Positions 6,800 to 26,995 of a stretch of DNA of 64,000 nt are shown one piece after another. The notes below the pieces were generated by a model that did no database searches, was not told the DNA's origin, and worked only from the letters and a program-made list of their open reading frames with translations. Source of the DNA: an uncultured Chlorobiaceae bacterium (GTDB taxonomy: Bacteria > Bacteroidota > Chlorobiia > Chlorobiales > Chlorobiaceae); assembly GCA_903869365.1 (NCBI GenBank), contig CAIPYV010000022.1, positions 1-64,000 on the forward strand, written 5' to 3'. A program made the position numbers and the translations under genes. How positions within the stretch are numbered: position 1 is the first letter of the stretch; each line of letters opens with the position of its first letter.

Positions 6800-7735
6800 C
6801 TATGATGTTTTGTTTTTCGTGATTACGCGAGATGCAAGCAGTTGAAGGTAGGTCCGGTTTACCATTTCAGTGTATTCGTTTAAAGGGATTGGATGCACCT
6901 TGTCATCAGCGGTTTTGTCGATGGTATTCAGTGACGGTTCCGGCAACTTAGCAGCAGCAGGAGGCAATAGATATGAATCATTCAAACGGTTTATGGCAGA
7001 TACTGCCTCAAGCATTGCGAGTGAGGGGGCCGGTGGCTTGAATGCTATCAGAGCGTAATCGGGTGCCTGAAGTAACCGGGAAGAGATTATGTCTGCCAGC
7101 CGGTTATAGAGCGCAGCTTCCGGTGCTTCTCCAGCCATCATGCTCAATGGCTCTCCTACCGTATTGCGATTTACCCGTGCGATCAAGGGCGAAGCAAACC
7201 CAGTCTGGATGGCAAGAAATTGTAAAAGATGAGGTGGTACGGGGCGGAGATGGGTCGGGTCAATAAAAAAATTGCAGCTTCCGACCGTTACATTTTCGGG
7301 GTTGGGTGTTTCAAGGATGAAAATCCCGCCAGGGGCCAGCATGTCGAACACGGCTTCAAAAAAAGAGGTATGTCTTTCAGGTGGTATATGTTCAATGAGA
7401 TGAAAGCCTGTGATGAGGCTGTAGCAGATTTCATGCTCGCGATCAACAAAACTGAACAGATCAGCTTCTTCAACGGTCAAACCGTTTGTTCTGCAGTGCT
7501 CAACAAACTTTGGATTGTAATCAATACCGAGAGCCGGTATGCGGTTTTCGTTCAAGAGTTCAAGCCACTCCCCACGTCCGCATCCGAGGTCAAGGGCATA
7601 AGCACTGCTCTCAATAGGCAGAAGATTTGCCAACGGAAGGTAAACAGAGAGTCGCTGCTTGATTTCATTGAGTGGGCCTCTAAAAAATGACTCAAATGCT
7701 TCGTAATTAAACGGCGAATATAAAGTGTTCATCAT
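6800..7735 (-). CDS. Class I SAM-dependent methyltransferase
   Basis: A 311-residue protein with the Rossmann-type S-adenosylmethionine motif LDLGCGRGEW near residue 50, an acidic ribose-binding position in the following strand (ALGIDYNP), and the post-motif FHLIEHIPPE typical of Methyltransf_23-like enzymes. It precedes the giant glycosyltransferase gene by 139 bases on the same strand, so a role in methylating a sugar or capping a glycan chain is likely; chain-terminating methyltransferases in O-antigen clusters have this setting. It starts with two Met codons in a row (7735 or 7732). The C-terminal 90 residues are proline- and alanine-rich and not part of the catalytic core. The substrate is inferred only from context. 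Confidence 0.85.
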   Translation of the reverse strand: MMNTLYSPFNYEAFESFFRGPLNEIKQRLSVYLPLANLLPIESSAYALDLGCGRGEWLELLNENRIPALGIDYNPKFVEHCRTNGLTVEEADLFSFVDREHEICYSLITGFHLIEHIPPERHTSFFEAVFDMLAPGGIFILETPNPENVTVGSCNFFIDPTHLRPVPPHLLQFLAIQTGFASPLIARVNRNTVGEPLSMMAGEAPEAALYNRLADIISSRLLQAPDYALIAFKPPAPSLAMLEAVSAINRLNDSYLLPPAAAKLPEPSLNTIDKTADDKVHPIPLNEYTEMVNRTYLQLLASRVITKNKTS

Positions 7736-8083: not shown

Positions 8084-11000
8084 ATGGCTGATTACACTAC
8101 CCAAATTGAGCAACTGTATGTTGCCTATTTTGATCGACCCGCCGATGTTTATGGCTTAGCCTTCTGGAACAACAGGCTGAATACCGGTGGCAGCATTTCC
8201 GAAATTAGCAATCAGTTTTCAACGTCAGCTGAATATCTTGCAACCTTTGCAGGTCTGGATCTTTACCAGACAGTAACAAGAGTCTACCAGAACCTCTTCA
8301 ATCGTGCTCCTGATACCGCAGGTCTGGTATACTGGGTAACTGCTCTCACCAACCATAGTGTTACTATTGCCAATGTTGTTGAGGTCATCACCAATGCGGC
8401 ACTGGCTAATCCTGCTTCAGAGGTTGATCACGTTTCCATTGTCAGTAAAGTAGCAGCGGCAACCGCATTTACGCACGCTTTGGTTACCCCTGAGCAGATT
8501 GCAGCGTATTCCGGATCCGGTCCGGCTTTGGTAGCGAAAGAGTGGCTGGCTCCAATTCATGATGCAGCAACGTTAGCATACGCCTTGGATCCTGTTCATC
8601 TCAGCGCAGCAATTGCTTACATTGAAGCAACACCATCGTCTACCACACCTCTTACTACAGGTCAGGATAATCTCTATGGTACTGCAGGAAATGATGTCTT
8701 CACTTCCACTCAGGCCACCTTGCAGCTTGGTGATTCAGTTCATGGCGGTGCAGGTCAGGATAAGCTTACAGTCGATATCTCAGGTGCTGGTATCGCTCTG
8801 AACGGATTTGCTACAGACAGTGTAGAGACTATCCAAGTTAAATCGCTTTCAACAAGTGCATCAACTGTCGACTTTTCTGATGTTGTGGGTTTAACCCAGA
8901 TTGTTTCCAATGAGACCGACGGTGCTCCTTTGACCTTCCAGGATATTCAGTCAGTCAATGGTGTAGCCATCAAGATTATTGATACTCTTGAGACGCACAA
9001 CTTCACCTATGATACACATGCATACACTTCAGGTGTTGATGCAGTTGATTTGACTTTACAGGAGATCCGTAATGCGGAAATTCATTTCGCTACTACTCAT
9101 GGTACATTAGGCGACTCACTGGTTGATCAGGTGAACATTCATTCAGTGAATGTTATTAATAAGGTTGCAGATCTCAAGGTTGGCGGCAACTTGAATGTTA
9201 TCAACATCGACGGTAATGCTGATCTGAGAATTGTTGCTGCGCTGGATCCAAATCTCACAACGGTTGATGCTCATGGACTGAATGCCAATCTCAGGCTTCT
9301 TTTGTCAGATGAAGCGCGTGATATTACAGTTACTGGAGCGCAACTTGATAACTATCTTGATTTTGGTGCTGAAAGCCATAAGAAAACGGTTATCACTTGG
9401 GGCGGAGATGACACCATTTTAGCATTGAATGGTTTAAATAACATCAACGCAGGGGATGGTGATAACACAGTTTATTCCGGTGCTGCCAACGATACGATTA
9501 CCACAGGAGCTGGTGATGATTTCATATCAGATCTTGGTGGGAATAATACGATTTCTTCTGGTGGCGGTAATGATGTCGTAGATCTTTATCATCCAAAAAC
9601 CGATCTTGGCAATGACTCTATTGTTCTCGGTTCCGGTGACGACAGGCTTATCATAGATGCACACGATCTTGAGGTTTACGATACCATTATAGGAGGTACC
9701 GGTATTGATACCATTGAACTTCATAATTTCGGTTCAAGCGATGCTCTTGGTCATGTACTTGCTGCCGAGACTCAGAGGACATCTGGTATTGAAGTATTCG
9801 ATTTACGCGACACGGAAATTACTCTCGCATTGACTGATCACCTGGTTGAAACAGCTGATGGCAACTCTCTTACCGTACGGACTATTGATTCAGCTGAAGA
9901 TTACGTTGTTGGGCAGACCATTGATATCAGAGGTATAACTACGCCACAATTTCATGTTGGCCTTCAAGGTGGCGTTGTGAGAGATACCGTTATTGCTAAC
10001 GAGTATACTGTAAATAGTTCGAGTTCATTAGCTTTCGGGGATGGACCGGCCCAAGATACTCTTGTTATTTATGGTGATGCAAATATCAGCGCAACAGACA
10101 CGATCAATATCACCGGCCTGGAGCGTATTGAGCTTAAAGCTGACACCACCGAGCCATCTACATGGAGCATTGATCTTACCACAGGCTTGCTTGAGCAGAC
10201 GACTGGCACAGCACCACTTTATATCGTTGTAAGTCCGAATACACCTCAGGGCAGTATCCTTTACTTGAATACGGTTGGCTTGAATTCGGCTATTGACGTC
10301 TATGTAGAACGGAATTCCAACGTCAAGGTCGTTGTCAATGGCACACCGATTGTTGTAAGTGGAATTGTTTCCAACGCTACGTATAACAATGCTAATGCGG
10401 CTGGAGAGTTGTTTGTTCAGACAGAGCTTCATTTTACAACGAATGCAGACAGCCTTGTTGGTTCAAGTTTCAATGATACCTTCTATGCTGACAGCACAGC
10501 TCAAATCGGACCTGCTGATTATGCTAATGGTGATGGTGGTACAGCAGATGAGCTTGTTCTTGGTGCAGGACTTTATAATGGTGATACGATCAGACATCAG
10601 TTTGATGATGCCAAGATTAAAAACATTGAGGTACTTACCATCAGTGACAATCCAGGTTATGCTGTCTGGTTCTCTGATGCAGATTCTTATGATTTCAACA
10701 CCTTTAACCTGACAGCAGGCGATGATGTTGTTACTCATGCACAAAGTGGACATACCTTTAATACAGGAGCAGGGGACGATCTCGTTACTTTGGAACTTGG
10801 CGCTCTTGGTGTTACGGTCAATGGTGGTAGCGGTTATGATGAGGTTCATTTCACTGACGGTGCGGGTTCTATTCCAGGATCATCATCACTCTTTATCTCT
10901 GAAGTTGAGTATGTGCACGGCAGTAATGAGAATAATACTGTAACTATTCTTGGCACTAATACCGTTGGAGTTCATCTTGATCTCTTTGCAGGTAACGATG

Positions 11001-11818
11001 TTGTTCAAGGTTCAAGTCATGCTGATAATCTTACAGTTGACGGTGGGACTGGGGTAGACGTTGTCTACGGTAATGGCGGGGATGATACACTTTTCGTTCA
11101 GCATGTCGAATTAGTTTATGGTGACAGAGCTGATTCAGGCGATCATTCTAATATAAAGCCTGCTGACTTTGTCGGTGGAAATGACACTATTACCACAACG
11201 CATGATGTTCTTGGTGATACACCTGATACGGTTATTGGTGGTGCGGGAAATGACACGATTACATTGCTGAACTCCGCAAAAGACACTGTTGTATTTGGTT
11301 ATGAAGCAGAACACACAGGTAGTGTACCAGTTGCAGTGTCGAGTGGTAACGATACCATCTATCATTTTGCTGCTGGTGCCATTAATCCAGGGCCAACAGA
11401 AGATGTTCTTGATTTCAGTGGCTTAATTGCTCACTCTTCTAAAGGATTCTTTGCTACTGATGTAGTCAGAGATAATTTGCATTTTGGTATTGATCTGGTA
11501 CATGATGGTAACTATAACATAGCTGTAGTCTGGAATGCAAACGCTACAGAAATCGTTGACAATGCCGGTACAACATTTACAACATTCTGGGCTCCTGGGC
11601 ACATTGCGATTGCCAACAACGGCGAAGCAGTTATTGCCTTTACTGCTGATGCAGAGGGAGACAATGTTGAAAATGTAACACTTGCTTATGTTTGCGATAC
11701 CGATGCTGGTGCAGGCCAGACATGGGAAGTAACCATTATCGGTACGGTTCACTTCGACCAGTTGACTGGACTGAACTCTTCTGGAACGCTTAATGCCGAG
11801 AACTTCCACGTTGCATAA
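8084..11818 (+). CDS. DUF4214 / RTX-like surface protein, probable type I secretion substrate
   Basis: A 1244-residue acidic protein with no N-terminal signal peptide. Two DUF4214 units occupy about residues 4-55 and 58-110, each with the YFDRPAD.GL.FW or LFNRAPDTAGL.YW signature. From about residue 193 on there are degenerate calcium-binding nonapeptide (GGxGxDxux) repeats, densest near 438-530 and 965-1066, for example TTGAGDDFI and IGGAGNDTI, mixed with long beta-rich stretches. This is the architecture of RTX adhesins and S-layer-like proteins exported by PrtD/HlyD/TolC machines. All three components are encoded 3-9 kb downstream on the same strand. The last residues are a short hydrophobic tail, consistent with an uncleaved C-terminal secretion signal. 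A terminator follows, so it is transcribed apart from the exporter genes. Adhesin versus S-layer cannot be decided here. Confidence 0.85.
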   Translation: MADYTTQIEQLYVAYFDRPADVYGLAFWNNRLNTGGSISEISNQFSTSAEYLATFAGLDLYQTVTRVYQNLFNRAPDTAGLVYWVTALTNHSVTIANVVEVITNAALANPASEVDHVSIVSKVAAATAFTHALVTPEQIAAYSGSGPALVAKEWLAPIHDAATLAYALDPVHLSAAIAYIEATPSSTTPLTTGQDNLYGTAGNDVFTSTQATLQLGDSVHGGAGQDKLTVDISGAGIALNGFATDSVETIQVKSLSTSASTVDFSDVVGLTQIVSNETDGAPLTFQDIQSVNGVAIKIIDTLETHNFTYDTHAYTSGVDAVDLTLQEIRNAEIHFATTHGTLGDSLVDQVNIHSVNVINKVADLKVGGNLNVINIDGNADLRIVAALDPNLTTVDAHGLNANLRLLLSDEARDITVTGAQLDNYLDFGAESHKKTVITWGGDDTILALNGLNNINAGDGDNTVYSGAANDTITTGAGDDFISDLGGNNTISSGGGNDVVDLYHPKTDLGNDSIVLGSGDDRLIIDAHDLEVYDTIIGGTGIDTIELHNFGSSDALGHVLAAETQRTSGIEVFDLRDTEITLALTDHLVETADGNSLTVRTIDSAEDYVVGQTIDIRGITTPQFHVGLQGGVVRDTVIANEYTVNSSSSLAFGDGPAQDTLVIYGDANISATDTINITGLERIELKADTTEPSTWSIDLTTGLLEQTTGTAPLYIVVSPNTPQGSILYLNTVGLNSAIDVYVERNSNVKVVVNGTPIVVSGIVSNATYNNANAAGELFVQTELHFTTNADSLVGSSFNDTFYADSTAQIGPADYANGDGGTADELVLGAGLYNGDTIRHQFDDAKIKNIEVLTISDNPGYAVWFSDADSYDFNTFNLTAGDDVVTHAQSGHTFNTGAGDDLVTLELGALGVTVNGGSGYDEVHFTDGAGSIPGSSSLFISEVEYVHGSNENNTVTILGTNTVGVHLDLFAGNDVVQGSSHADNLTVDGGTGVDVVYGNGGDDTLFVQHVELVYGDRADSGDHSNIKPADFVGGNDTITTTHDVLGDTPDTVIGGAGNDTITLLNSAKDTVVFGYEAEHTGSVPVAVSSGNDTIYHFAAGAINPGPTEDVLDFSGLIAHSSKGFFATDVVRDNLHFGIDLVHDGNYNIAVVWNANATEIVDNAGTTFTTFWAPGHIAIANNGEAVIAFTADAEGDNVENVTLAYVCDTDAGAGQTWEVTIIGTVHFDQLTGLNSSGTLNAENFHVA

Positions 11819-11886
11819 GCAGTAACAAGAGTGAGATCATGTAAACAGCGAGTAAAAGTGCTTATATGATCAGAAGTAATGTTAAA

Positions 11887-11927
11887 AAGACTTGCTCCTC
11901 ATAGTTGAGGGGCAAGTCTTTTTTTTT
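11887..11927 (+). terminator. Rho-independent terminator after the surface-protein gene
   Basis: A 15-bp stem (11887-11901 with 11906-11920, one G-T pair) with a four-base loop is followed by an uninterrupted run of T to 11927. It ends the transcript of the 1244-residue protein and separates it from the downstream GT4 gene. Confidence 0.93.
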
Positions 11928-11953
11928 GTGCAATCTTCAGACAAAAATCTACA

Positions 11954-13213
11954 GTGAACATTCTTTTTATCCATCAGAACTTTCCAGCTCAATTCAAGTC
12001 CCTTGCCCCCGCATTAGCAGCTCTCGGGCATGACGTCCGTGTTTTCGTCCTGAAAAAATCTCTTTCACCTGAACTCAAGGGGATTACTCAGATTGTGTAT
12101 GAAGTTAAAAGGCGCAGTACGCCCGATGTGCATCCATGGCTCATCAGTTTTGAATCGCAGATCATTCGTGGTGAAGCAGTTTTTCTTGCGGCTAAAAAAC
12201 TGAAAGCGGAGGGATATAGGCCAGACGCAATTATAACCCATCCGGGATGGGGCGAAAGTATGTTTGTGAAGGATGTCTGGCCTGCAGTTAAACTGGGCAT
12301 ATACTGTGAGTTTTATTATCAGGCTCAAGGTGCTGATCTCGACTTTGATCCGGAGTTTAGTGAAAACGATGAAGCCGATGTGTGCCGGATGCGCATGAAA
12401 AACCTGAACAATATGCTGCATTTTCCCGTTGCCGATGCAGGCATAGCTCCAACCTACTGGCAGGCACTCACGTTTCCCCGATCATTTCATAAAAAAATAT
12501 CCGTCATTCATGACGGAATTGATACCCGTAAAATTACTCCCTATGCAGCTGCAAACCTGCAGATAAAGACAGCAGCCGAGATATTGATTCTGAAAAAATC
12601 CGATGAAATCATCACCTTTGTCAACAGAAACCTTGAACCATACCGAGGTTTTCACATTTTCATGAGAGCATTGCCGAATCTTCTGAAAAGAAGACCAAAT
12701 GCCAGAGTTTTGATCGTTGGAGGAAGTGGGGTGAGTTACGGTCCAAAACCGAAAGAGGGTGGAAGCTGGAGGGAGGTTTTAACAGAGGAAGTGCGAGGGA
12801 AGATCAGTGATGCTGACTGGTCGAGAGTCCATTTTATGGGCAATATTGCCTATAACCATTTTATTCCACTGCTGCAGGTCTCAACTGTCCACCTCTATTT
12901 CACCTATCCCTTTGTCCTGAGCTGGAGCCTGCTTGAGGCGATGAGCGCTGGGTGCGCCATTATTGCCAGTAATACAAAACCAGTACAGGAAGTAATCAAG
13001 CATGATGTTACAGGACGGTTAGTTGATTTTTTTGATGTACCAGGGTTAGTCAACGAGGTGTGCACCCTGCTTGATGATCCTGCATCGCGTGCCCGATTAG
13101 GGAGTGAAGCGCGGGCGTATGCAGTAGCAAACTATGATTTACAAACCATCTGTCTTCCTCGTCAAATAGCCTGGATCAACAAACTCTGCGCACAGCATAA
13201 CCCAGTACCATAG
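11954..13213 (+). CDS. GT4-family glycosyltransferase (PF12000-type N-terminus)
   Basis: A 419-residue GT-B glycosyltransferase. It begins with the Rossmann motif ILFIHQNFPAQF. The middle of the N-terminal half has HPGWGESMFVKDVWP and CEFYYQ, typical of the Glyco_trans_4_3 family, and the C-terminal half has the donor-binding region ending in LEAMSAGCAIIAS. GTG at 11954 is the only start that keeps the first beta strand; no clear ribosome-binding site precedes it. It is the first gene after the surface-protein terminator and runs in the same direction as the exporter genes, so glycosylation of the secreted protein or of a surface glycan is a reasonable inference. Sugar and acceptor are unknown. 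Confidence 0.88.
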   Translation: MNILFIHQNFPAQFKSLAPALAALGHDVRVFVLKKSLSPELKGITQIVYEVKRRSTPDVHPWLISFESQIIRGEAVFLAAKKLKAEGYRPDAIITHPGWGESMFVKDVWPAVKLGIYCEFYYQAQGADLDFDPEFSENDEADVCRMRMKNLNNMLHFPVADAGIAPTYWQALTFPRSFHKKISVIHDGIDTRKITPYAAANLQIKTAAEILILKKSDEIITFVNRNLEPYRGFHIFMRALPNLLKRRPNARVLIVGGSGVSYGPKPKEGGSWREVLTEEVRGKISDADWSRVHFMGNIAYNHFIPLLQVSTVHLYFTYPFVLSWSLLEAMSAGCAIIASNTKPVQEVIKHDVTGRLVDFFDVPGLVNEVCTLLDDPASRARLGSEARAYAVANYDLQTICLPRQIAWINKLCAQHNPVP

Positions 13214-13290
13214 GTGATTGGTTGTGAAACAAAGAAGAAAAGGTTTATCTTTGTACACATTTGTTAATACATAGATGAAAACCATTCTTC

Positions 13291-13998
13291 ATGAGGACAC
13301 CTGAGGATGCTGAACTCTTCGAAAAAAAAGAAGAGTCAATAAAGATGTCATGCCTTCTTGCGGAAAAAGAGCGGACATTGGAGAAGCTTAAAATTTCTGT
13401 AGCACAATTTCAGCAGCGATATAATGCAGAGATCAGTCAAAAGTATGTTGAGCTAAAAAGTCTTAAAGCAATATTCTCTCCGTATGGTCCCAACAGCAAG
13501 AGTTCAACATATCGAGCATCATCGGCAATATCAATCGAAGCTCAGGGTGTTCGGCATAACGTTCAAGAAACGAAAGAAGCAAAGAAAGTCTATAGAAGCA
13601 TTGCTGCTGTCATTCATCCCGATAAAGCAACTGCCACAGGCTCTCATGCTCTGCGAACAAGGCTGATGGCTGCATTGAATGATGCCTACCAGCGAAAGGA
13701 TGTCATCGGGATGCAGCGTCTTTTCAGCCAATGGCAGGAAAGTCCTGAGGCAGTTGAAGGTGAAGGCAGTGCGGCTGATCTGCTGAGAATGAATCGGCTG
13801 ATTACTCTCATCAAAAAACGTCTTGCGGATATTGACCAAGAAATTTTCAGGATAACTCACTCTGATATCTATCGGTTAATGCTTAAAGCGTCTGAAGGGG
13901 ATAAGAGAGGCAGAGATATTCTGGCTGAAATGTCGACGACTATCAATAAAAAAATTCTGGATGCCCAAAATCAACTTCTGCTGCGCTTATACGGTTAG
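13291..13998 (+). CDS. J-domain-like (DnaJ-type) protein in the secretion island
   Basis: A 235-residue, probably soluble protein. The N-terminal 60 residues are highly charged and likely coiled coil. Around residues 98-135 lies a J-domain-like segment: AKKVYRSIAAVIHPDKAT with the diagnostic HPD tripeptide, then a helix ending in LNDAYQRKDV as in DnaJ helix III. The C-terminal half is helical and unfamiliar. An ATG at 13275 opens only a ten-codon frame, so 13291 is the likely start. J proteins stimulate Hsp70 ATPase and hand over unfolded clients. Since type I substrates must stay unfolded until export, a cytosolic role in keeping the 1244-residue protein export-competent is attractive, but inferred only from position. 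Confidence 0.7.
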   Translation: MRTPEDAELFEKKEESIKMSCLLAEKERTLEKLKISVAQFQQRYNAEISQKYVELKSLKAIFSPYGPNSKSSTYRASSAISIEAQGVRHNVQETKEAKKVYRSIAAVIHPDKATATGSHALRTRLMAALNDAYQRKDVIGMQRLFSQWQESPEAVEGEGSAADLLRMNRLITLIKKRLADIDQEIFRITHSDIYRLMLKASEGDKRGRDILAEMSTTINKKILDAQNQLLLRLYG

Positions 13999-14013
13999 GT
14001 CTCTGCAAGGAGA

Positions 14014-14529
14014 TTGCGCAGCTTAACATCTCATTTCAAGAAAGTATTGGTATTGCTTAAAAAAGTTACCTACAGATATATCGAGGTCGAAGATCGCATT
14101 CTTATGCTGGCTGAGTTGGATGGAGGGGAGCCGGTAGTGTTCTGGTTAACGCTCCGTCTCAGTGTACGGCTGGTCAGGGAACTTCTCTCTCATCTGGAAC
14201 GCATGGTACCACGGTCTGGTTTGGTTGATACGGGTTTGATGCTGGCCTGTAAGCAGCGGGATGCAGAGTGGAGGCACGAAGCCTCAGAGCCGGTGCTTTA
14301 TAGCCCCTCTTTATTCAAACTTTTACCGGAAAAAGTCGGTCTTGCGTATTCTGCGCAACATGCAGCCCTGATGTTTCAGCTTGGTGACGGACAGGTGACA
14401 CAGCTGCACATGAGCCTGATGGAGCTTCGGCAGTGGCTGGCGATTATGTATCGGCAGTTTCAACGTGCAGGGTGGCCAATGGAGGTTTGGCCTGAATGGT
14501 TCACGCTGTCAGAGGGCTGCAGAAACTAA
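14014..14529 (+). CDS. Unknown protein of the type I secretion island
   Basis: A protein of about 171 residues that I do not recognise. It has no signal peptide or membrane helix; the sequence is rich in Leu, Arg and Trp and seems to form a compact alpha/beta domain, with YRYIEVEDRILMLAEL near the N-terminus and alternating strands and amphipathic helices after it. The frame opens at TTG 14014, only one base after an AAGGAG, which is too close for normal use. In-frame TTG codons at 14047 and 14053 are alternatives, so the N-terminus is uncertain. It lies 15 bases after the J-domain-like gene and before the DUF6447-type gene. Placement suggests an accessory cytosolic factor of the exporter or its substrate. 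Confidence 0.65.
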   Translation: MRSLTSHFKKVLVLLKKVTYRYIEVEDRILMLAELDGGEPVVFWLTLRLSVRLVRELLSHLERMVPRSGLVDTGLMLACKQRDAEWRHEASEPVLYSPSLFKLLPEKVGLAYSAQHAALMFQLGDGQVTQLHMSLMELRQWLAIMYRQFQRAGWPMEVWPEWFTLSEGCRN

Positions 14530-14699
14530 TACTCTTTCGTTGATTCGGAGAGTGTTGTGCATTCTCAGCCACGTCGGTGGTGCCAAAAAGTAGTTGATAT
14601 GTTTTGAGTTTATCAGTAAATAATTATACTATAACTTTCTCAAGTGAGTGATTTAAGAATTATTTAATATTTTATAGAGAACTGGCAAGGAGTTTTTTT

Positions 14700-14906
14700 A
14701 TGGCTAAAGTAAAAAAAGAGGAACCGGCAGTAACTGTTAATGGAGTGAAATATCTTATTGCTGATTTTTCTGAAGAGGCGAAAAGACAGCTTTTAAATGT
14801 TCAGGCTGTTGAATCCGAGATTTCTCATCTCCAGGTTCAGCTGGCAATTGCACAGACGGCTCGCAATGCCTATCAGCAGGCATTCAAATCAGCCCTGCCT
14901 GCATAA
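14700..14906 (+). CDS. DUF6447-type small protein
   Basis: A 68-residue protein with the pattern of the DUF6447 family: a short beta hairpin (VTVNGVKYLI), an SEEAKRQL helix start, and a C-terminal helix with LQ.QLAIAQTARNAYQQAFKSAL. It has no signal peptide or membrane segment. A good AAGGAG precedes the ATG. Members of this family tend to lie beside type I secretion genes and RTX-like proteins; the function is unknown to me. The upstream 170 bases are AT-rich with no gene and may carry a promoter. The following PrtD gene begins 79 bases downstream. Confidence 0.75.
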   Translation: MAKVKKEEPAVTVNGVKYLIADFSEEAKRQLLNVQAVESEISHLQVQLAIAQTARNAYQQAFKSALPA

Positions 14907-14984
14907 TTTGAGGATGGTTATTACTAAGGAATAATATGTTTGAACGCCGATTGAAATGATGTGTTATTATGAATATGAGATGTT

Positions 14985-16709
14985 TTGCTTGTGAAAGGAA
15001 ATAAAGTCAAATCACCCTTACGCGATGCTCTTGGAGCATTGTCCCCTTCTCTTAAGCGGGCCTTTTTTTTTAGTTTATTTGTCAATGTTCTGGTGTTGGC
15101 ACCAAGTGCTTATATGCTGGAGGTCTATGATCGGGTTGTCAACAGCCGCAGTCATAAGACGCTGCTTATGCTTACGCTTCTTGTTGTTGGAGCCTATGCT
15201 CTGCTTGAGGCATTGGAGTGGGTTCGTCGTCAAGTGATGCATGATGCGGGGATGGAACTTGACAAGGAGCTGGGGACGCGTGTGTTCAGCGCTGTTTTTT
15301 CAGCCCGGCTTTTAAATCTTCCCGTAGTAGGCGCGCAGGCCTTGCGTGACCTTAAAGTTATCCGTGAATTTCTTCCTTCCCAGGCTCTTCTGGCTTTTGT
15401 CGATGCTCCACTGGCTCTGTTGGTTCTTATCCTGATTTTCTCGATGAATGCTACTCTTGGGTGGTTTGCTGTGGCTGGTGCCGTTGTTCAGTTCGCGATC
15501 GGTGTGGTCAATGAGCGCCGTATTCGTGAACCGCTTCTTGCTGCCAATCGGAGTGCAGTGGGTGCTCACAGTTATGCTGAAGGTGTGATTCGCAATGCTC
15601 AGGTTATTGAATCGATGGGAATGATCGGCGACATCCATAAGCGCTGGATGGGTCGTCAGCAGGATTTTCTTATTCAGCAGGCTGTTGCGTCCGATCATGC
15701 AGGTACTAATTCGGCGTTATCAAAATTGGTGCAGAGTCTTTTAAGTTCTCTTCTCCTCGGTATGGGTTGCTGGCTGACGCTGAAAGGTGAACTGCATGGC
15801 TCGGGTATGATTGTGGCGTCGATTCTCGGTGGAAGGGTTCTTGCACCGCTTGTACAGATTATCGGAAGCTGGCGTCAGGTGGAGAGCACCATGGAGGCTT
15901 ATAAACGTCTGGACGGTTTGCTCAAGGAGTTTGCTGTCACTGAGAAGGGAATGTCGTTGCCGGCACCGAAGGGTTTTCTTTCTGTTGAGGGCGTTTTGGC
16001 CGGCGCGCCGAGAAGCTCTGTACCGATTCTCAGAGGGATCAGTTTCAAAGTTGCTCCAGGAGGGTCGTTAGCGATTGTCGGTCCTTCTGCTTCAGGCAAA
16101 ACGACTCTTGCCCGTTTGCTGGTAGGGATATGGCCGGCGATGCAGGGTAAGGTGCGGCTTGATGGGAATGATATTTATCAGTGGGACAAGGAGGAGCTTG
16201 GGCCCTATATCGGTTATTTGCCTCAAAATGTTGAGCTGTTTGAGGGTACCATTGCTGAAAATATTGCACGCTTTGGGGAGCCTGATGCATTAAAAGTCAA
16301 AGAGGCATGTCGTATGGTCGGTCTTGATGCCTTTATTGAGCAGTTGCCCAAGGCTTACGAAACCCAGATTGGTGATGATGGCTCATTTCTTTCGGGTGGG
16401 GAACGTCAGCGTGTCGCATTAGCGCGAGCAGTGTATGGAATGCCGAAGTTTGTTGTGCTTGATGAGCCGAACGCAAGCCTTGATGAAGCGGGTGATGCAG
16501 CTTTGCTCAATGCCGTGAAGCTTTTAAGGACACATGGTACGACGGTTATCGTTATTACGCATCGTTTGAATATTTTGGGGGCAATAGAGCACATGCTTGT
16601 TTTGGTTGATGGTCAGGTTCAGCGTTTCGGCACCTGTCAGGAGGTTCTGGCTGCTCTGCAGTCACCACCGCCCACTTCGCAGCCATCCAACCAGCAGTCA
16701 CCGAGCTAA
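14985..16709 (+). CDS. Type I secretion ABC permease/ATPase (PrtD family), first copy
   Basis: A 574-residue fused transmembrane-ATPase exporter. The membrane domain starts around residue 22 (LFVNVLVLAPSAYMLEVYDRVV, a PrtD-family signature). The nucleotide-binding domain has Walker A GPSASGKTT near 365, the signature LSGGERQR near 468, Walker B VVLDEPN near 488 and the switch histidine in ITHR. It would energise export of the RTX-like protein through HlyD- and TolC-type partners encoded next. The start is either TTG 14985 or GTG 14991; neither has a clear ribosome-binding site. A second, clearly different PrtD gene follows 24 bases later, an uncommon arrangement compatible with a heterodimeric exporter. 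Confidence 0.92.
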   Translation: MLVKGNKVKSPLRDALGALSPSLKRAFFFSLFVNVLVLAPSAYMLEVYDRVVNSRSHKTLLMLTLLVVGAYALLEALEWVRRQVMHDAGMELDKELGTRVFSAVFSARLLNLPVVGAQALRDLKVIREFLPSQALLAFVDAPLALLVLILIFSMNATLGWFAVAGAVVQFAIGVVNERRIREPLLAANRSAVGAHSYAEGVIRNAQVIESMGMIGDIHKRWMGRQQDFLIQQAVASDHAGTNSALSKLVQSLLSSLLLGMGCWLTLKGELHGSGMIVASILGGRVLAPLVQIIGSWRQVESTMEAYKRLDGLLKEFAVTEKGMSLPAPKGFLSVEGVLAGAPRSSVPILRGISFKVAPGGSLAIVGPSASGKTTLARLLVGIWPAMQGKVRLDGNDIYQWDKEELGPYIGYLPQNVELFEGTIAENIARFGEPDALKVKEACRMVGLDAFIEQLPKAYETQIGDDGSFLSGGERQRVALARAVYGMPKFVVLDEPNASLDEAGDAALLNAVKLLRTHGTTVIVITHRLNILGAIEHMLVLVDGQVQRFGTCQEVLAALQSPPPTSQPSNQQSPS

Positions 16710-16733
16710 CTCTAATCCGGAAGCAGATACTTC

Positions 16734-18443
16734 ATGAAACCTGATTTTTTTGACCGCAGTGCATTGACTCGCAAGCTCTGGACCTTTCGCAAGGAGTTTT
16801 TATGGGTGGGCATTTTCAGTATGATTGCCAATGTGCTTATGCTTACGCCGACACTTTATATGCTTCAGGTCTACGGGCGAGTTATGAAGAGTGGCAGTGA
16901 GCTGACTCTTCTGATGGTTACCTTATTCCTTGTGTTTTTTTATGGCGTGATGGCCTTTGCGGAATGGTTACGGTCGCGTCTTCTTGTGCGGATAGGGGTA
17001 AGGCTTGATGAAGAGCTTAACTCACAGGTGTTCAACTCAAGCTTTGAGGCCTATCTGAACCGTACCAAGCACAATGTCAATGAAGCGTTTTCGGATTTGA
17101 CCAATATTCGTCAGTTCCTGACAGCTAACGGTGTCATAGCGTTTTTTGATACTCCTTGGACCCCGATTTATATAGCGGTTATTTTTTTACTGAATCCATT
17201 TCTTGGCTGGCTTTCAATTTTATTTGCAGTACTTCAGGTTGGTTTGACCATGCAGAGCCATCGGATTACAACAAGAGAGATTGAAAGTGCAACAGATTCA
17301 GGCAATGACAGCCACCGCTTTGTCCAGAGCAAGCTTCGCAATATTGAGCCGGTGCACGCTATGGGTATGGTGGGTAATTTTCGTGATCGCTGGTTCAGGC
17401 TGCATGATGTTTCGCTCGCAAAAGCCGAATCATCAATGGAGAGACAGCATCGTCAACAAGCTGTTGCCAAGTTTGTCCGCTATACGATGCAGTCACTCAC
17501 CCTTGGAGCGGGAGCCCTGATGGTTATTGAGGGGAAGATGTCTGCCGGTTCGATGATTGCTGCCAATGTTCTGATGTCGAAGGCGCTTCAGCCTCTTGAT
17601 CTTGTTGTGGCTACATGGAAACCTTTTGTTCAGGCCCGTACGGCTTTCCGTCGTCTGGAGAAGCTCCTTGAAGAATTTCCAGAGCGTCAGCCTGGTGCAA
17701 AGCATCAGGATCCTTTGGGAGAGATAAGGCTTGAGGCTCTTTCCGCGACTGTTGAGGGTCGTGAACAACCTATTTTACAAGATATCAATGTCGTGTTTCC
17801 TGCAGGCAGGGTTGTTGTCGTTGTCGGTCCTTCGGGTTCCGGCAAATCAACACTTGCGCGTTGTCTTGTGGGTATCTGGCCTGAACGTGATGGAAAGGTT
17901 CTTATTGATGGTGAGCCGATAGAAAGCTGGGACAGGATAGAACTGGGTCCGCATATTGGTTATCTTCCTCAGGATATTGAGCTTTTTGATGGCTCGATTG
18001 CTGAAAATATCGCTCGTTTTGGCGAACTTGATTCAGAGAAAGTGATTGAGGCTGCAAAACGTACCGGTATTCATGACATGGTTTTACGTTTTCCGCATGG
18101 TTATGATACGCAAATAGGTGAGGCTGGCGGGATTCTTTCGGGAGGTCAGCGGCAGCGTCTTGGCCTGGCCCGGGCGATGTACGGTAATCCGGAAATTGTG
18201 GTGCTCGATGAACCTAATGCCAATCTTGACGATGCTGGAGAACGCTCCCTGCTTGAGGCTGTGGCCGATTTAAGAAGGTCCAACAAAACCGTGATTCTCA
18301 TTACTCATCGTCCGAGTATTCTTGGTGCGGCTGATCTGCTGGTCGTGATGCGGGATGGCAGAATTCTTCATTGCGGACCTCGAAATGATGTATTGGCGGC
18401 TCTTAATCCAAAAAATACAACGCCTAAGCTGTCTAAAGCCTGA
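16734..18443 (+). CDS. Type I secretion ABC permease/ATPase (PrtD family), second copy
   Basis: A 569-residue PrtD-type exporter with the same layout as its upstream neighbour: a membrane domain beginning with MIANVLMLTPTLYMLQVYGRVM, then an ATPase domain with Walker A GPSGSGKST near 364, signature LSGGQRQR near 467, Walker B VVLDEPN and switch ITHR. All catalytic motifs are intact in both copies, so neither is an obvious pseudo-half. They differ across the membrane domain and are not a recent duplication. The gene sits 24 bases after the first exporter and 33 bases before the HlyD-type gene, so all are likely one operon. Either the two form a heterodimer or each serves its own substrate. Confidence 0.92.
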   Translation: MKPDFFDRSALTRKLWTFRKEFLWVGIFSMIANVLMLTPTLYMLQVYGRVMKSGSELTLLMVTLFLVFFYGVMAFAEWLRSRLLVRIGVRLDEELNSQVFNSSFEAYLNRTKHNVNEAFSDLTNIRQFLTANGVIAFFDTPWTPIYIAVIFLLNPFLGWLSILFAVLQVGLTMQSHRITTREIESATDSGNDSHRFVQSKLRNIEPVHAMGMVGNFRDRWFRLHDVSLAKAESSMERQHRQQAVAKFVRYTMQSLTLGAGALMVIEGKMSAGSMIAANVLMSKALQPLDLVVATWKPFVQARTAFRRLEKLLEEFPERQPGAKHQDPLGEIRLEALSATVEGREQPILQDINVVFPAGRVVVVVGPSGSGKSTLARCLVGIWPERDGKVLIDGEPIESWDRIELGPHIGYLPQDIELFDGSIAENIARFGELDSEKVIEAAKRTGIHDMVLRFPHGYDTQIGEAGGILSGGQRQRLGLARAMYGNPEIVVLDEPNANLDDAGERSLLEAVADLRRSNKTVILITHRPSILGAADLLVVMRDGRILHCGPRNDVLAALNPKNTTPKLSKA

Positions 18444-18476
18444 TCCTATTTTTGACAAATGTTTTAAAGTATAACC

Positions 18477-19649
18477 ATGAGTATTCGTGATGTTTTGGCA
18501 ATAAAAAAATCTGTATCGGTAGAACAGACTCAAGGTGAGAAGTATCACAGTCCTAAAAAAACCATACGGTTAGGATTTTGGATATTGCTTGTCGGATTTG
18601 GCGGGTTTCTCCTCTGGGCTGCATTTGCGCCACTTGATGAAGGTGTTCCCTGTCAGGGCGTTGTCAGTATAGCCACCAAGCGTAAGGTGGTGGAAAATCA
18701 GCGCGGGGGGAAAGTTGAAAAGGTAAATGTCCGGGAGGGTCAGATGGTCAAGGAGGGGGATATACTGATGGTCCTTGACAACCAGACGGCCAAAGCTCGT
18801 TATGATGAGGTTCATCAGCACTACCTCGGGATGAGGGCGGCAGCGGATCGCCTGATCACAGAGATGAATGGAGGCAGTTCGATTACGTTTCACAAAGACC
18901 TGCTGTCTGATCCTGAGCGGGGAATTGCTGAACAGAATATGCGCAACCAACGCCAGCTTTTTGCATCTCGCCGGCAGACGTTAAAACTTATGCATGATCA
19001 GCTTGCAAGTATTACAACGTTAGCAGCCGAGGGTTATGCTCCCCTGAGTCAGCAGCGTGATCTTGAATTGAAGATTTTGGAGTTCAAGTCAAGTACGGCG
19101 TCTCAGTTTTCTCAGGTGCAGCTGGAAGTGGAGGCTGATGCTGAAAAGACCAGAGCCCTTGCTCAGGAGCTTGCTGAAACTGAGGTTCGCTCACCGGCAA
19201 CAGGGCAGGTTGTGGGGTTGCTGGTGCAGTCTGTAGGAGCAGTGATCCAGCCGGCCCAGAAGATTATGGATATTGTGCCTCTTCATGAGGGTCTTCTGAT
19301 TGATGCAAGGGTCAATCCTCAACTTATCGACAGCATTCGTAAGGGTCTACCGGTTGATGTCAACTTTTTTTCATTTTCTCACTCCCCACAGCTTGTTGTG
19401 AAGGGTGAGGTTGAGTCGCTTTCGAAAGATATTGTGACTGATCCCGGAGTTAATCCCGCGGCTCCCGCGGCTTCCTATTATCTTGCACGAATTTTTGTGA
19501 CACCTGAAGGGATGAAGGTTCTGGGTAAGCGTCAGATGCAGCCGGGTATGCCGGTGCAGGTTGTCGTCAAGACTGGTGAACGCTCGCTGTTGACCTATCT
19601 TCTTGATCCGTTGGTTAAGCGTATTAACGTATCAATGAAAGAAGAGTAA
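18477..19649 (+). CDS. HlyD/PrtE-family periplasmic adaptor of type I secretion
   Basis: A 390-residue membrane fusion protein. A cytosolic N-terminus of about 30 residues leads to one transmembrane helix (LGFWILLVGFGGFLLWAAFAP), followed by a lipoyl-like half (VENQRGGKVEKVNVREGQMV), a coiled-coil hairpin with several Gln-rich heptads, the second lipoyl half (VRSPATGQVVGL) and a beta-barrel domain. It would anchor in the inner membrane, contact the PrtD ATPases and bridge to the TolC-type channel encoded next. Size and domain order match PrtE/HlyD adaptors. It is 33 bases after the second PrtD gene and 75 bases before the outer-membrane factor gene, completing the apparatus. Confidence 0.93.
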   Translation: MSIRDVLAIKKSVSVEQTQGEKYHSPKKTIRLGFWILLVGFGGFLLWAAFAPLDEGVPCQGVVSIATKRKVVENQRGGKVEKVNVREGQMVKEGDILMVLDNQTAKARYDEVHQHYLGMRAAADRLITEMNGGSSITFHKDLLSDPERGIAEQNMRNQRQLFASRRQTLKLMHDQLASITTLAAEGYAPLSQQRDLELKILEFKSSTASQFSQVQLEVEADAEKTRALAQELAETEVRSPATGQVVGLLVQSVGAVIQPAQKIMDIVPLHEGLLIDARVNPQLIDSIRKGLPVDVNFFSFSHSPQLVVKGEVESLSKDIVTDPGVNPAAPAASYYLARIFVTPEGMKVLGKRQMQPGMPVQVVVKTGERSLLTYLLDPLVKRINVSMKEE

Positions 19650-19724
19650 GAAAGAGTGGCTCAGTATTCTCTTGAAATTATGGGATTGCTATGATGGTCA
19701 ACTAAATGTTATGAGTCAGAGGAT

Positions 19725-21074
19725 ATGAAGTTATTGACGCGGTTAATGGTTGTTGCAGGGATATTGTATGCTTTACCTCTCTCTGCACAGACGGTAAATT
19801 TATCGTCACTTTATCAAAGCGCTTTAGAGTATGATGCTCAGGTACGTGGAGCCAAGGCTGATTATCAGGTCTCCAAGGAGGAGATCAATAAAGCGATATC
19901 TCAATTTCGCCCAATTGTACGTGTCAACGGGTCAAGGGGTAGAAATGAGACGAAGAGCGTTTCTCCAGGCTATTATGCCGGGACGTATAATCGCAATGAT
20001 CAGTTTTACAATTCCATAAATTATGGTGTTTCGGTTCAACAACCGCTGTTTAATATGTCAAGTATTGCTGGCTATAAACAGGCAAAAGCGGTAACGGCAA
20101 AAAGCGATGCTGTGGTTCAAAATGAAACTTCAAATTTGATTATCCGAATTGCTGAAGCCTATTGTAATGCTTTGTATGCTGAGGATAATCATGAGTTCAG
20201 CAAGGCGCATATTCGTGCATCATTAGAGCAGCTGCAACAGACAAAGCGGCGTTTTGAAAAAGGATATGGTACGATCACCGAGATAAGCGAGGCTCAAGCG
20301 ACTTATGATCTGGCTTTGGCTGATGATGTTGATATCGTCAATAGTCTTGAGTTCAGTCGTCGTGAACTGGAGCATTTTACTGGCGTTTATCCTGATGCTT
20401 TATGCAAAGTTGCGCCTGAAAAACTGGTTTTGCAGAGACCTGAACCGGATAACATTGAGTCGTGGATCGAGCTTTCACGTGTCATGAATCATGAGGTTGC
20501 TGCTGCACGTCAGGAGATTCAGATAGCAAAAACGGAGATTATGAAGCAGCGGGCGGTTCGTTATCCCACGATAAATCTTTCGGGTGGGAGAAATTATTCG
20601 GAGAGCGATAACAACTATACCATCGGATCCACGTACGATACCTATTCGATCAGCCTTCAGATGAGTATGCCGATTTATACTGGTGGTTATGCCAGTGCAT
20701 CGGTTCGTCAGGCACAATCAAAACGACTGAAAGCCCAGGAACAGCTGAGCTGGCAGGAACGTGGCACTGAGTCGAATGTACGTAAATATTACAATGGTGT
20801 TATAAGCAGCATCGCTCAGATTAAGGCTTATGAGCAGGCCGTTAAATCCGGAGAGATTGCTTTTACTGGAACTAAAAAAGGGTTTGAGGCTGGTTTGCGT
20901 ACCAACACTGAAGTCCTTGATGCTGAGCAGAAGCTCCTTTCAAGCAAACGGAACCTGGCAAAATCACGGTATCAATATATTTTGAACTTTCTTCAGCTTA
21001 AAGACAGTGCCGGTTCATTGGCAACAAGCGATGTTGATGAGGTGAACGGTTGGCTGAGCGAGTCCAAGATGTAG
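19725..21074 (+). CDS. TolC-family outer membrane channel
   Basis: A 449-residue outer-membrane efflux protein with a clean signal peptide (residues 1-21, ending PLSAQ). The two internally similar halves of the family are visible: coiled-coil helices rich in Ala, Gln and Glu alternate with short beta strands, and the C-terminal half carries YPTINLSGGRNYSESD and the late motif RTNTEVLDAEQKLLSS characteristic of TolC proteins. It would be a trimeric channel receiving substrate from the PrtD/HlyD complex. It is the last gene of the exporter operon. The 247 bases after it are AT-rich and contain no gene or convincing terminator. Confidence 0.93.
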   Translation: MKLLTRLMVVAGILYALPLSAQTVNLSSLYQSALEYDAQVRGAKADYQVSKEEINKAISQFRPIVRVNGSRGRNETKSVSPGYYAGTYNRNDQFYNSINYGVSVQQPLFNMSSIAGYKQAKAVTAKSDAVVQNETSNLIIRIAEAYCNALYAEDNHEFSKAHIRASLEQLQQTKRRFEKGYGTITEISEAQATYDLALADDVDIVNSLEFSRRELEHFTGVYPDALCKVAPEKLVLQRPEPDNIESWIELSRVMNHEVAAARQEIQIAKTEIMKQRAVRYPTINLSGGRNYSESDNNYTIGSTYDTYSISLQMSMPIYTGGYASASVRQAQSKRLKAQEQLSWQERGTESNVRKYYNGVISSIAQIKAYEQAVKSGEIAFTGTKKGFEAGLRTNTEVLDAEQKLLSSKRNLAKSRYQYILNFLQLKDSAGSLATSDVDEVNGWLSESKM

Positions 21075-21321
21075 TTTTGTGCTCTGAGCGACTATGGCTC
21101 TATAACCGATTGAATCACTCTTCCTCTCTCAGGACGGATCATATCTTATAACACATCTTTCTTTCATTATTTTGTAAGCACATTCATCAGATCTTACAAT
21201 GATCGATAAAAATATTAAATATTCTTTCAGGCATTAACTGACAAATATGTTATTGCGATATCGGTTTACAATATAGCCGGTATTTTTTCATACAATCAGT
21301 CTCACAACCATAGGTAACATA

Positions 21322-26347: not shown

Positions 26348-26995
26348 ATGCAAGAAAAACCAAGGAAAAAGCTTGGGTTTTTAATTGTTCGAGTCGTTTT
26401 ATTGGTGATTGGCATTTCATTACTTATAAACCTACCTGTGAAAGCTGACAAAGGAAAGGTCTCCAGCAGCTCATTTGCTTCAAGTTCCTTTGCAGGAAGC
26501 TATTCTTCTGCAAGCTCGTCAACAGCCAGTTCGTCGACAGCACAAGAAGTTTCAGCTGGTAATGTATCGTATGGGGAATATACGTCTCGAACGTCGGAAT
26601 CAGATGAACTGGTCGTTAAAACTGCATCAATAAGAAGCTCAGGGCCAATAGGTTTTGGGATACTGTATACTGGGGATAACTATGGACACCTTACTGTACG
26701 AAAGACAAAACATGCCACAGAGGTCATATTTAGTGTCGACAAAGGAAAACTAAACAGTTTTCATCAAGGGTCTGTTATCAAGGTAACATTTGATCAATAT
26801 AAAACGCTCTCATTTTCAGGTAGTGTAACGTCAAAAGAGAGCTCATCAAACATCGTACTGACTGACACGAAAATTTTTTTACAGGCTTTAAAAAACACCA
26901 AGAAACTTATCGTTGAAGTTGAGTTTATTACGGGAGGGAAAAAAAGGTGTGAATTTGATGTTTCAGCATTTGATCTGAGCAAGATCGGATTATAG
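26348..26995 (+). CDS. Exported or membrane-anchored serine-rich protein
   Basis: A 215-residue protein of unknown function. A basic N-terminus (KPRKK) precedes one hydrophobic helix (about residues 10-30) that could be a signal peptide cut near VKA or an anchor. Residues 37-70 are very rich in Ser with Ala and Thr, a flexible linker. The rest is a beta-rich domain ending in a segment of the pattern ...FLQALKNTKKLIVEVEFI..G...CEFDVSAF, which resembles the C-terminal ends of several small periplasmic proteins of proteobacteria that I cannot name. It stands alone behind the pal terminator. A wall- or membrane-tethered binding domain is a guess. Confidence 0.75.
   Translation: MQEKPRKKLGFLIVRVVLLVIGISLLINLPVKADKGKVSSSSFASSSFAGSYSSASSSTASSSTAQEVSAGNVSYGEYTSRTSESDELVVKTASIRSSGPIGFGILYTGDNYGHLTVRKTKHATEVIFSVDKGKLNSFHQGSVIKVTFDQYKTLSFSGSVTSKESSSNIVLTDTKIFLQALKNTKKLIVEVEFITGGKKRCEFDVSAFDLSKIGL

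What the first reader, a model, noticed from the sequence alone, without database searches (positions are those of the whole stretch)
8084..21074. Complete type I secretion island with two PrtD ATPases, a surface substrate and four cytosolic accessory genes
Seen: a signal-less DUF4214/RTX-like protein, then a GT4, a J-domain-like protein, an unknown 171-residue protein, a DUF6447-type protein, two unequal PrtD exporters, HlyD and TolC, all on one strand. Known: PrtD-HlyD-TolC exports RTX proteins, normally with one ATPase. Inference: the accessory proteins keep, modify or dose the substrate before export, and the two PrtD proteins form a heterodimer or serve two substrates. This unit is the best candidate for an undescribed system here.
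Basis: partly seen in the sequence, partly recalled or inferred. Interest (0 to 1): 0.7.

Follow-up and report, generated by a model that had tools for sequence, protein, structure and literature searches.

The report
Surface-protein export island with helper proteins
A green sulfur bacterium carries an export machine for a large surface protein together with sugar-attaching and small helper proteins, and related helpers sit beside such export machines in unrelated bacteria, which points to an unstudied step that prepares the protein before export.

Summary
The genome is a Chlorobiaceae.

Two ATPases are the rule in this family: all 53 fetched loci holding both have PrtD1-PrtD2 adjacent. Each forms its own clade with intact ATPase motifs; an obligate heterodimer is likely. 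But 40 of 53 pairs have no DUF6447 upstream, so the pair is separate from the helpers.

Of 98 class genomes, 14 have DUF6447 and 13 of these U171. The 21 DUF6447 copies lie in the exporter cluster (17) or near an RTX-type gene (4); U171 is in the exporter cluster in only 7 of 19 genomes. Related sets with GT4 and a methyltransferase sit by DUF4214 substrates and single-PrtD exporters on alphaproteobacterial plasmids; DUF6447 also occurs on gammaproteobacterial ones.

Best reading: a cytosolic pre-export module in which glycosyltransferases modify the RTX protein while DUF6447/U171 hold or deliver it. Association is shown; function is inferred. No paper in the held library mentions DUF6447.

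The parts
8084..11818 (+). 1244-aa DUF4214/RTX surface protein, the probable substrate
   Evidence: PF13946 and PF00353 over cut-off; K+R 2.9%, 1 Cys, Thr 10.9%, C-terminal hydrophobic-Gly motif
11884..11923 (+). terminator-like stem (18 pairs, T tail) between the substrate and the operon
   Evidence: consensus scan; 19 sites found, 13.9 expected in shuffles; this one has the most pairs
11954..13213 (+). GT4 glycosyltransferase, PF12000 type
   Evidence: 40-59% identical homologues near RTX genes or type I systems on the plasmids looked at
13291..13998 (+). J235: J-domain protein with long flanking helical-looking parts
   Evidence: HPD invariant in 6 rows; auxilin J-domain 1.1e-5; 9 of 98 genomes, all DUF6447-positive
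14047..14529 (+). U171: unknown protein, probably 160 aa (171 aa if started at 14014)
   Evidence: no family match; 19 of 98 class genomes; homologues beside T1SS in Alphaproteobacteria
14700..14906 (+). DUF6447-type 68-aa protein
   Evidence: model: beta hairpin plus 41-residue helix, pLDDT 90
14985..16709 (+). PrtD1 type I secretion permease/ATPase
   Evidence: TIGR01842 635.1 bits
16734..18443 (+). PrtD2 type I secretion permease/ATPase
   Evidence: TIGR01842 666.4 bits; 41% identical to PrtD1
18477..19649 (+). HlyD-family membrane fusion protein
   Evidence: TIGR01843 260.2 bits
19725..21074 (+). TolC-family outer membrane channel
   Evidence: TIGR01844 286.8 bits
21257..21284 (+). terminator-like stem after tolC
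6800..7735 (-). MT311: SAM-dependent methyltransferase, divergent from the substrate gene
   Evidence: PF13489; homologues of 36-44% in five alphaproteobacterial stretches and one gammaproteobacterial one of this study (L088, L092, L094, L235, L236; L233); 64% homologue beside a SUB-like gene in G070
1390..6660 (-). 1756-aa multi-domain glycosyltransferase (three GT4-type, one GT2-type stretch)
   Evidence: 64% homologue next to MT311 and a SUB-like gene in G070

Best explanation
This is a PrtD-type type I secretion island for DUF4214/RTX surface proteins, with a dedicated cytosolic pre-export module. SHOWN by genomics: the genes, their order, and their repeated association across Chlorobiaceae and Proteobacteria. 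INFERRED mechanism: (1) the acidic, Cys-poor, Lys/Arg-poor RTX chain stays unfolded in the low-calcium cytosol; (2) the PF12000 GT4 and the divergent methyltransferase/multi-domain glycosyltransferase put a glycan on it there; (3) DUF6447 (beta hairpin plus one long helix, possibly oligomeric) and U171 bind the chain as substrate-linked chaperone or delivery factors, helped in this lineage by a J-domain protein that recruits DnaK; (4) a PrtD1-PrtD2 heterodimer with HlyD and TolC exports it; (5) calcium outside folds it into a surface coat or adhesin. Rough step-wise confidence: dedicated pre-export module 0.6; heterodimer 0.6; protein (not polysaccharide) glycosylation 0.45; DUF6447 as chaperone/adaptor 0.45.
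For: Phylogenetic profile: DUF6447 in 14 of 98 class genomes, U171 in 19 of 98 after dropping one false hit; both 13, DUF6447 only 1, U171 only 6, neither 78, Fisher 6.6e-11, kinship ignored. On the PrtD tree, of 5 independent contrasts in DUF6447, U171 goes the same way in 4.3 on average and never the opposite way. J235 in 9 of 98, all 9 DUF6447-positive. DUF4214 in 7 of 98; 6 of these have DUF6447, U171 and J235. Position: of 21 DUF6447 copies, 13 lie immediately upstream of prtD1, 4 more in the same cluster, 4 near an RTX/DUF4214-type gene elsewhere. Across phyla: DUF4214-GT-DUF6447-PrtD-HlyD in S. dubius and a relative; DUF4214-DUF6447-U171 in S. mediterraneus P4; DUF6447-U171-ABC-HlyD in Pseudosulfitobacter; U171 (2.7e-16) directly upstream of PrtD in Niveispirillum, a locus fetched for its PrtD. 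Glycosylation: GT4 53% identical in two of these loci, MT311 36-44% identical in six stretches; in G038 DUF6447 lies between a DUF4214 protein and two TPR-GT41 proteins, GT41 being the O-GlcNAc-transferase family (recalled). Pairing: PrtD1 and PrtD2 are each one side of a branch with SH-aLRT 100, 53 of 53 adjacent, with one HlyD next in 51 and one TolC in 50.
Against: No expression, binding, glycan or export data. The phylogeny-aware test has only 5 contrasts, p 0.06-0.5. U171 lies in the exporter cluster in only 7 of 19 genomes; in seven others (G044, G052, G059, G062, G066, G068, G074) its full copy is in a different, conserved neighbourhood. DUF6447 is not beside the exporter in 40 of 53 loci, so PrtD1/2 export does not need it in general. 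Eight of 14 DUF6447 genomes have no DUF4214 domain. Two of the DUF6447-linked large proteins (G012, Methyloprofundus) have no Pfam match and one (G037:C92) is under the RTX cut-off. DUF6447-like proteins also occur in marine viral contigs in another context. The U171 model is poor (pLDDT 42.6). The PrtD tree is a quick one and the tool warns that long branches meet. The substrate C-terminal motif is post hoc (15 of 15 against 19 of 230).
Confidence: 0.55

Rival explanations
1. The glycosyltransferases and methyltransferase build a surface polysaccharide or LPS that anchors the exported RTX protein, rather than modifying the protein itself; DUF6447 and U171 would then act only in export.
For: rfb sugar genes lie near several related plasmid loci, with an O-unit flippase in Qipengyuania and a polysaccharide export gene in Leisingera; anchoring of the RsaA S-layer protein by lipopolysaccharide is stated in a passage of PMC11784148.
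Against: Among the genes scanned between 1390 and 24041 of the window there is no polysaccharide flippase, polymerase or export gene; DUF6447 lies directly beside two TPR-GT41 genes in G038; glycosylated RTX surface proteins (SwmA, oscillin) are described in passages of PMC3034196.
Confidence: 0.35
2. The two PrtD proteins form two separate homodimeric exporters for different substrates sharing one HlyD and one TolC.
For: The nucleotide-binding residues are intact in both (52 PrtD1, 56 PrtD2, two single exceptions), so each could work alone; several DUF4214 proteins exist in the genome.
Against: 53 of 53 fetched loci with both keep them adjacent and in the same order, mostly followed by one hlyD and one tolC; both branches are long in the same outlier (G025); independent exporters should be lost singly in some lineages.
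Confidence: 0.25
3. DUF6447 and U171 are not chaperones but small partner proteins, for example subunits of the surface coat or regulators that dose the substrate.
For: DUF6447 is small and follows large substrate-like genes directly; helix-turn-helix regulators are near the Sulfitobacter loci.
Against: Neither shows a signal peptide by eye and U171 lacks the RTX-like composition of the exported proteins; DUF6447 lies next to prtD1 in 13 loci; neither window protein matches a DNA-binding family.
Confidence: 0.2
4. The accessory genes are passengers of a mobile surface-glycan island and have no link to export.
For: The module was found on plasmids in Proteobacteria (only plasmids could be searched there) and is patchy in Chlorobiaceae; horizontal transfer would carry neighbours along.
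Against: DUF6447 and U171 co-occur even where they lie apart in the genome (G052, G059, G062, G068, G074); all 21 DUF6447 copies found in the class lie in the exporter cluster or near an RTX-type gene.
Confidence: 0.1

Closest known systems
PrtDEF/AprDEF-type type I secretion of RTX proteins
   Same: PrtD, HlyD and TolC families over NCBIfam cut-offs, RTX substrate
   Different: two PrtD genes and four conserved genes without a membrane role in one run
Four-component MARTX exporter of Vibrio (RtxB, RtxE, RtxD, TolC)
   Same: two ABC proteins, both of which appear necessary for secretion there (section 5 of PMC3034196)
   Different: here both are PrtD type, far below the HlyB cut-off (248.4 and 289.6 of 725.55 bits)
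SecB-dependent export of HasA
   Same: a type I substrate that must stay unfolded with help of a cytosolic chaperone (section 5 of PMC3034196)
   Different: SecB is a general chaperone (recalled); here small unknown families are linked to the substrate or exporter genes
S-layer export by type I systems (RsaA, Campylobacter Sap, SwmA, methanotroph hauberk proteins)
   Same: large surface proteins and type I exporters; glycosylation reported for SwmA (passages) and suggested for methanotroph coats (passages); DUF6447 adjoins a SapC-family gene on a Pseudomonas plasmid
   Different: U171 shows no profile similarity to that SapC protein; no coat has been shown here

Membership tests
PrtD-type type I secretion system | ABC permease/ATPase of the PrtD family | tested here: met
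   TIGR01842 635.1 and 666.4 bits, cut-off 510.15
PrtD-type type I secretion system | HlyD-type adaptor and TolC-type channel in the same cluster | tested here: met
   TIGR01843 260.2 (208.65), TIGR01844 286.8 (225.15)
PrtD-type type I secretion system | RTX substrate without signal peptide nearby | tested here: met
   PF00353 46.5 bits, cut-off 23; N-terminus read by eye, no signal-peptide predictor was run
PrtD-type type I secretion system | C-terminal secretion signal that works | not testable with these tools
   a hydrophobic-Gly motif is shared by 15 of 15 linked substrates, post hoc
Asymmetric heterodimeric ABC exporter with one degenerate site | degenerate Walker B, signature or H-loop in one subunit | tested here: not met
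   Walker A Lys and Walker B Asp-Glu in 52 of 52 PrtD1 and 56 of 56 PrtD2; LSGG in 52 of 52 and 55 of 56; H-loop His in 51 of 52 and 56 of 56. The only lineage-wide difference at these sites: Glu after LSGG in 41 of 52 PrtD1, Gln in 56 of 56 PrtD2
MARTX four-component exporter | second ABC protein beside the first | tested here: met
MARTX four-component exporter | HlyB-type ABC proteins | tested here: not met
   TIGR01846 248.4 and 289.6 bits, cut-off 725.55
DUF6447 (PF20045) | score over Pfam's gathering cut-off | tested here: not met
   17.9 of 27 bits for the window protein; a Sulfitobacter relative in the same alignment scores 36.0
DUF6447 (PF20045) | shared conserved core (Tyr of the hairpin, QTA and final Leu) | tested here: met
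   17-row alignment with invariant Y18 Q52 T53 A54 L66
J-domain co-chaperones | HPD motif in a J-domain context | tested here: met
   invariant in 6 rows; auxilin J-domain 1.1e-5
J-domain co-chaperones | score over Pfam DnaJ cut-off | tested here: not met
   15.7 of 27.8 bits

The most novel reading that the evidence does not exclude
DUF6447 and U171 are dedicated, substrate-linked export factors of type I secretion: a cytosolic station, comparable in role to type III secretion chaperones, that holds RTX surface proteins while they are glycosylated and then delivers them to the PrtD exporter. The station spread by horizontal transfer between Proteobacteria and green sulfur bacteria, where it was joined to an obligate PrtD1-PrtD2 heterodimer.
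Probability: 0.33. Interest if true: 0.75.

Novelty: new variant of a known kind. Interest (0 to 1): 0.6.

Why it matters
Type I secretion is usually described as three parts plus a substrate. If small unstudied families prepare and deliver RTX surface proteins, and if glycosylation happens in the cytosol before export, that adds a step to the pathway and gives two genes (DUF6447, U171) that can be deleted and tested in culturable marine bacteria. The conserved PrtD1-PrtD2 pair gives a natural case for asking why an exporter would need two different ATPases.

Tried and rejected
DUF6447 model: good (pLDDT 90) but no Foldseek match in the PDB better than E 4.1. Profiles of U171 and DUF6447 against PDB sequences: nothing convincing, best E 0.09 and 0.047. 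U171 against the R. rubrum DUF6447 fusion protein and against SapC: no similarity. U171 in viral contigs: no confirmed relative. DUF6447 in annotated phage records: none, one query. U171 in a sample of the phylum: 20 of 394 genomes hit, all in the same family, one of them weak (G017, 5.4e-4); DUF6447 was not searched in that sample. J235 on plasmids: 3 records, two nearly full-length, not beside type I genes; L220 shows only a generic ABC-domain match. Tandem PrtD outside Chlorobiaceae: not seen in the four plasmid loci looked at for this; a small sample. Rows dropped before counts: G088 from U171 (match inside a 262-aa ABC permease frame); G034 and G090 from J235 (partial matches in longer frames); G003 set apart for DUF4214 (one weak match, 9% contamination). 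Considered and rejected: asymmetric heterodimer with a dead site; two independent exporters; chance adjacency of DUF6447.
Full report
WHAT IS THERE. The window lies in a 2.93-Mb, 136-contig genome. Of three named genome loci with a U171 relative, two are labelled uncultured Chlorobiaceae and one, with a short match, uncultured Bacteroidales. Two corrections: U171 probably starts at 14047 and has 160 residues, since 6 of 19 full homologous frames cannot start earlier; and an 18-pair terminator-like stem with a T tail (11884-11923) separates the substrate gene from a GT4-J235-U171-DUF6447-prtD1-prtD2-hlyD-tolC run that ends before another terminator-like stem (21257-21284) (a consensus scan). 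The substrate is thus likely its own transcription unit. Rfam (gathering thresholds) and tRNA scans of the window found nothing.

THE TWO ATPASES. Of 98 genomes of the class, 58 hold a match to PrtD1 at E up to 1e-60; 53 of the 58 hold two or more such matches, the second one mostly at about 40% identity beside the first. Of the exporter loci that I fetched, 53 hold both genes, and in 53 of 53 they are adjacent in the same order; HlyD is next in 51 and TolC after it in 50. Three fetched loci show PrtD2 without a full PrtD1: L195 has a PrtD1 fragment at the contig start, and in L197 and L198 the contig ends there. The PrtD places of G018, G044 and G071 were not fetched; their matches are fragments or begin at a contig start, G044 being a PrtD1 fragment with a stop. 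In a quick tree of 20 PrtD1, 20 PrtD2 and 11 exporters from plasmids (one, from Qipengyuania, a very long outlier), PrtD1 and PrtD2 are each one side of a branch with SH-aLRT 100; the tool warns that long branches meet. Walker A Lys and Walker B Asp-Glu are present in 52 of 52 PrtD1 and 56 of 56 PrtD2; two single exceptions occur at the signature (one PrtD2) and the H-loop (one PrtD1, G025); 41 of 52 PrtD1 have LSGGE where 56 of 56 PrtD2 have Gln. A heterodimer with two working sites is the simplest reading, but the pair is separate from the accessory genes: only 13 of 53 loci have DUF6447 directly upstream. A two-ATPase type I system is known in Vibrio (RtxB and RtxE; section 5 of PMC3034196 read). 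Searches for a PrtD heterodimer in print (listings, and passages of PMC8277102) showed none.

THE ACCESSORY GENES TRAVEL TOGETHER. U171 is in 19 of 98 class genomes (the tool counts 20; I dropped G088), DUF6447 in 14 of 98, J235 in 9 of 98 (tool count 11; two partial matches dropped), DUF4214 in 7 of 98. DUF6447 and U171: both 13, DUF6447 only 1, U171 only 6, neither 78; Fisher p 6.6e-11, which ignores kinship. On a tree of the exporters, in 5 independent contrasts for DUF6447, U171 changes the same way in 4.3 on average, never the other way (sign test 0.06-0.5; five contrasts cannot reach 0.05). All 9 J235 genomes have DUF6447. Six of the 7 DUF4214 genomes have DUF6447, U171 and J235; the seventh (G003) has one weak match and 9% contamination. 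Of 21 DUF6447 copies, 13 are immediately upstream of prtD1, 4 more lie in the same cluster (two each in G070 and G075), and 4 lie near a large RTX/DUF4214-type gene elsewhere: G012 (2333 aa, no Pfam match, 28% to the window substrate over 358 aa), G037:C92 (882 aa, RTX score under the cut-off), G038:C45 (DUF4214) and G075:C51 (DUF4214 and RTX, about 1.2 kb away). Against this: U171 is in the exporter cluster in only 7 of 19 genomes (G000, G010, G038, G060, G070, G072, G075), in G037 it lies beside a GT4 gene, and in seven genomes it is in a different, conserved neighbourhood; and most of the positive genomes are of one genus.

BEYOND THE FAMILY. In a sample of 394 genomes of the phylum, U171 occurs only in this family (20 hits, one of them weak). 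On plasmids, U171 queries hit 3, 4 and 32 records, all Sulfitobacter, Pseudosulfitobacter or Niveispirillum; 30 of the 32 are Pseudosulfitobacter records with the same match, of which I looked at one (L235: DUF4214 gene, a 76-aa protein that is not DUF6447, then U171). DUF6447 queries hit 12 and 16 records, in Sulfitobacter, Pseudosulfitobacter, Ruegeria, Rhodospirillum, Pseudomonas and Methyloprofundus. With L218, found through U171, that is 18 plasmid records with DUF6447; I looked at 13 (L088, L089, L091-L097, L218, L233, L234, L236). In 11 of 13 DUF6447 is directly beside a DUF4214/RTX-type gene, a U171 gene or a PrtD gene; one of the 11 is Methyloprofundus, whose adjoining 1640-aa protein has no Pfam match and is called RTX-type by composition and a short match to the window substrate. 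In Ruegeria (L092) the nearest ABC exporter gene, not PrtD type, is 3.5 kb away and a protein with substrate similarity 5.6 kb away. In Pseudomonas (L233) DUF6447 adjoins a 704-aa protein of RTX-like composition without a Pfam match and a SapC-family gene, with DUF4214 and PrtD genes on the same stretch. S. indolifex has a DUF6447-like frame after each of three DUF4214 genes, but two of the three look decayed. The Niveispirillum locus, fetched for its PrtD, has a U171 homologue (2.7e-16) directly upstream and a GT4 homologue (47%). In R. rubrum DUF6447 is the C-terminal part of a 405-aa protein.

GLYCOSYLATION GENES. The window's GT4 is 53% identical to those at two of these plasmid loci and 40-47% to two others. 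MT311 has homologues of 36-44% in five alphaproteobacterial stretches (L088, L092, L094, L235, L236) and one gammaproteobacterial stretch (L233); in the five the next gene is annotated as a glycosyltransferase. In G070 a 64% MT311 homologue and a 64% GT1756 homologue lie divergent from a SUB-like gene on another contig than the exporter. A search with GT4 hits 225 plasmid records; of six that I picked from different genera, all six have an RTX, calcium-binding or type I target gene within the stretch shown and four a type I ATPase. In G038 the order is DUF4214 protein, DUF6447, TPR-GT41, GT4/TPR-GT41. This favours sugars on the protein, but a polysaccharide that holds the protein is not excluded. 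Precedents for glycosylated RTX surface proteins are SwmA and oscillin (passages of PMC3034196), and methanotroph coats next to type I genes (passages of PMC11784148).

SUBSTRATES. Fifteen DUF6447- or DUF4214-linked proteins from Chlorobiaceae and plasmids have 0-2 Cys, little Lys and Arg and 9-14% Thr, and all 15 carry a hydrophobic-Gly-type motif in the last 35 residues, against 19 of 230 cluster proteins; the motif was taken from the same sequences, so this is descriptive. The window genome has three other DUF4214 proteins on contigs C121 and C125 and only one PrtD pair, so the exporter may serve several substrates; those three end differently from the window substrate.

READING. The steady neighbours of DUF6447 are a large substrate-like gene or the ATPase; it is predicted as a beta hairpin with one 41-residue helix. 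DUF6447, U171 and J235 have no signal peptide by eye, and J235 has the motif that recruits DnaK. A cytosolic holding and delivery step, joined to glycosylation, explains these facts best. It is an inference; nothing here shows binding or export. No paper of the held library contains the word DUF6447; one paper holds both DUF4214 and type I secretion, on type VI secretion in Serratia (listing only).

VERDICT. The exporter is a PrtD system in a two-ATPase form typical of the family; the accessory module is a real variant, shared across phyla, that I found described in no paper searched.

Noticed in passing
L098-L108 (viral contigs), e.g. L101:7986-8198: DUF6447-like 61-71-aa proteins lie after an ORF of up to 319 aa that reads like a ribonucleotide-reductase small subunit (name recalled) in marine viral contigs, an unrelated context for the same small family.
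   Followed up: partly
L039, L041-L046: In seven Chlorobiaceae genomes U171 lies alone in a conserved neighbourhood (ORFs of about 462, 316 and 105 aa on one side, 511, 380 and 228 aa on the other where the contig reaches) away from the exporter.
   Followed up: no
L091:1794-3011: Rhodospirillum rubrum plasmid gene with DUF6447 fused behind about 330 residues without a Pfam match.
   Followed up: partly
G000:C30:45627-48115 and G000:C82:19389-22099: Two more tandem pairs of ABC exporter genes in the same genome, not close to PrtD by similarity.
   Followed up: no
L233:18001-19067: On a Pseudomonas plasmid DUF6447 is followed 11 bases later by a SapC-family gene, the family named after an accessory gene of a Campylobacter S-layer locus (recalled).
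   Followed up: partly
window 29339-30391: 350-aa protein with Gly/Ser/Asn/Ala-rich repeats and a TTG start, opposite strand.
   Followed up: no
window 26348-26995: 215-aa protein with a Ser/Ala-rich stretch after a hydrophobic N-terminus.
   Followed up: no
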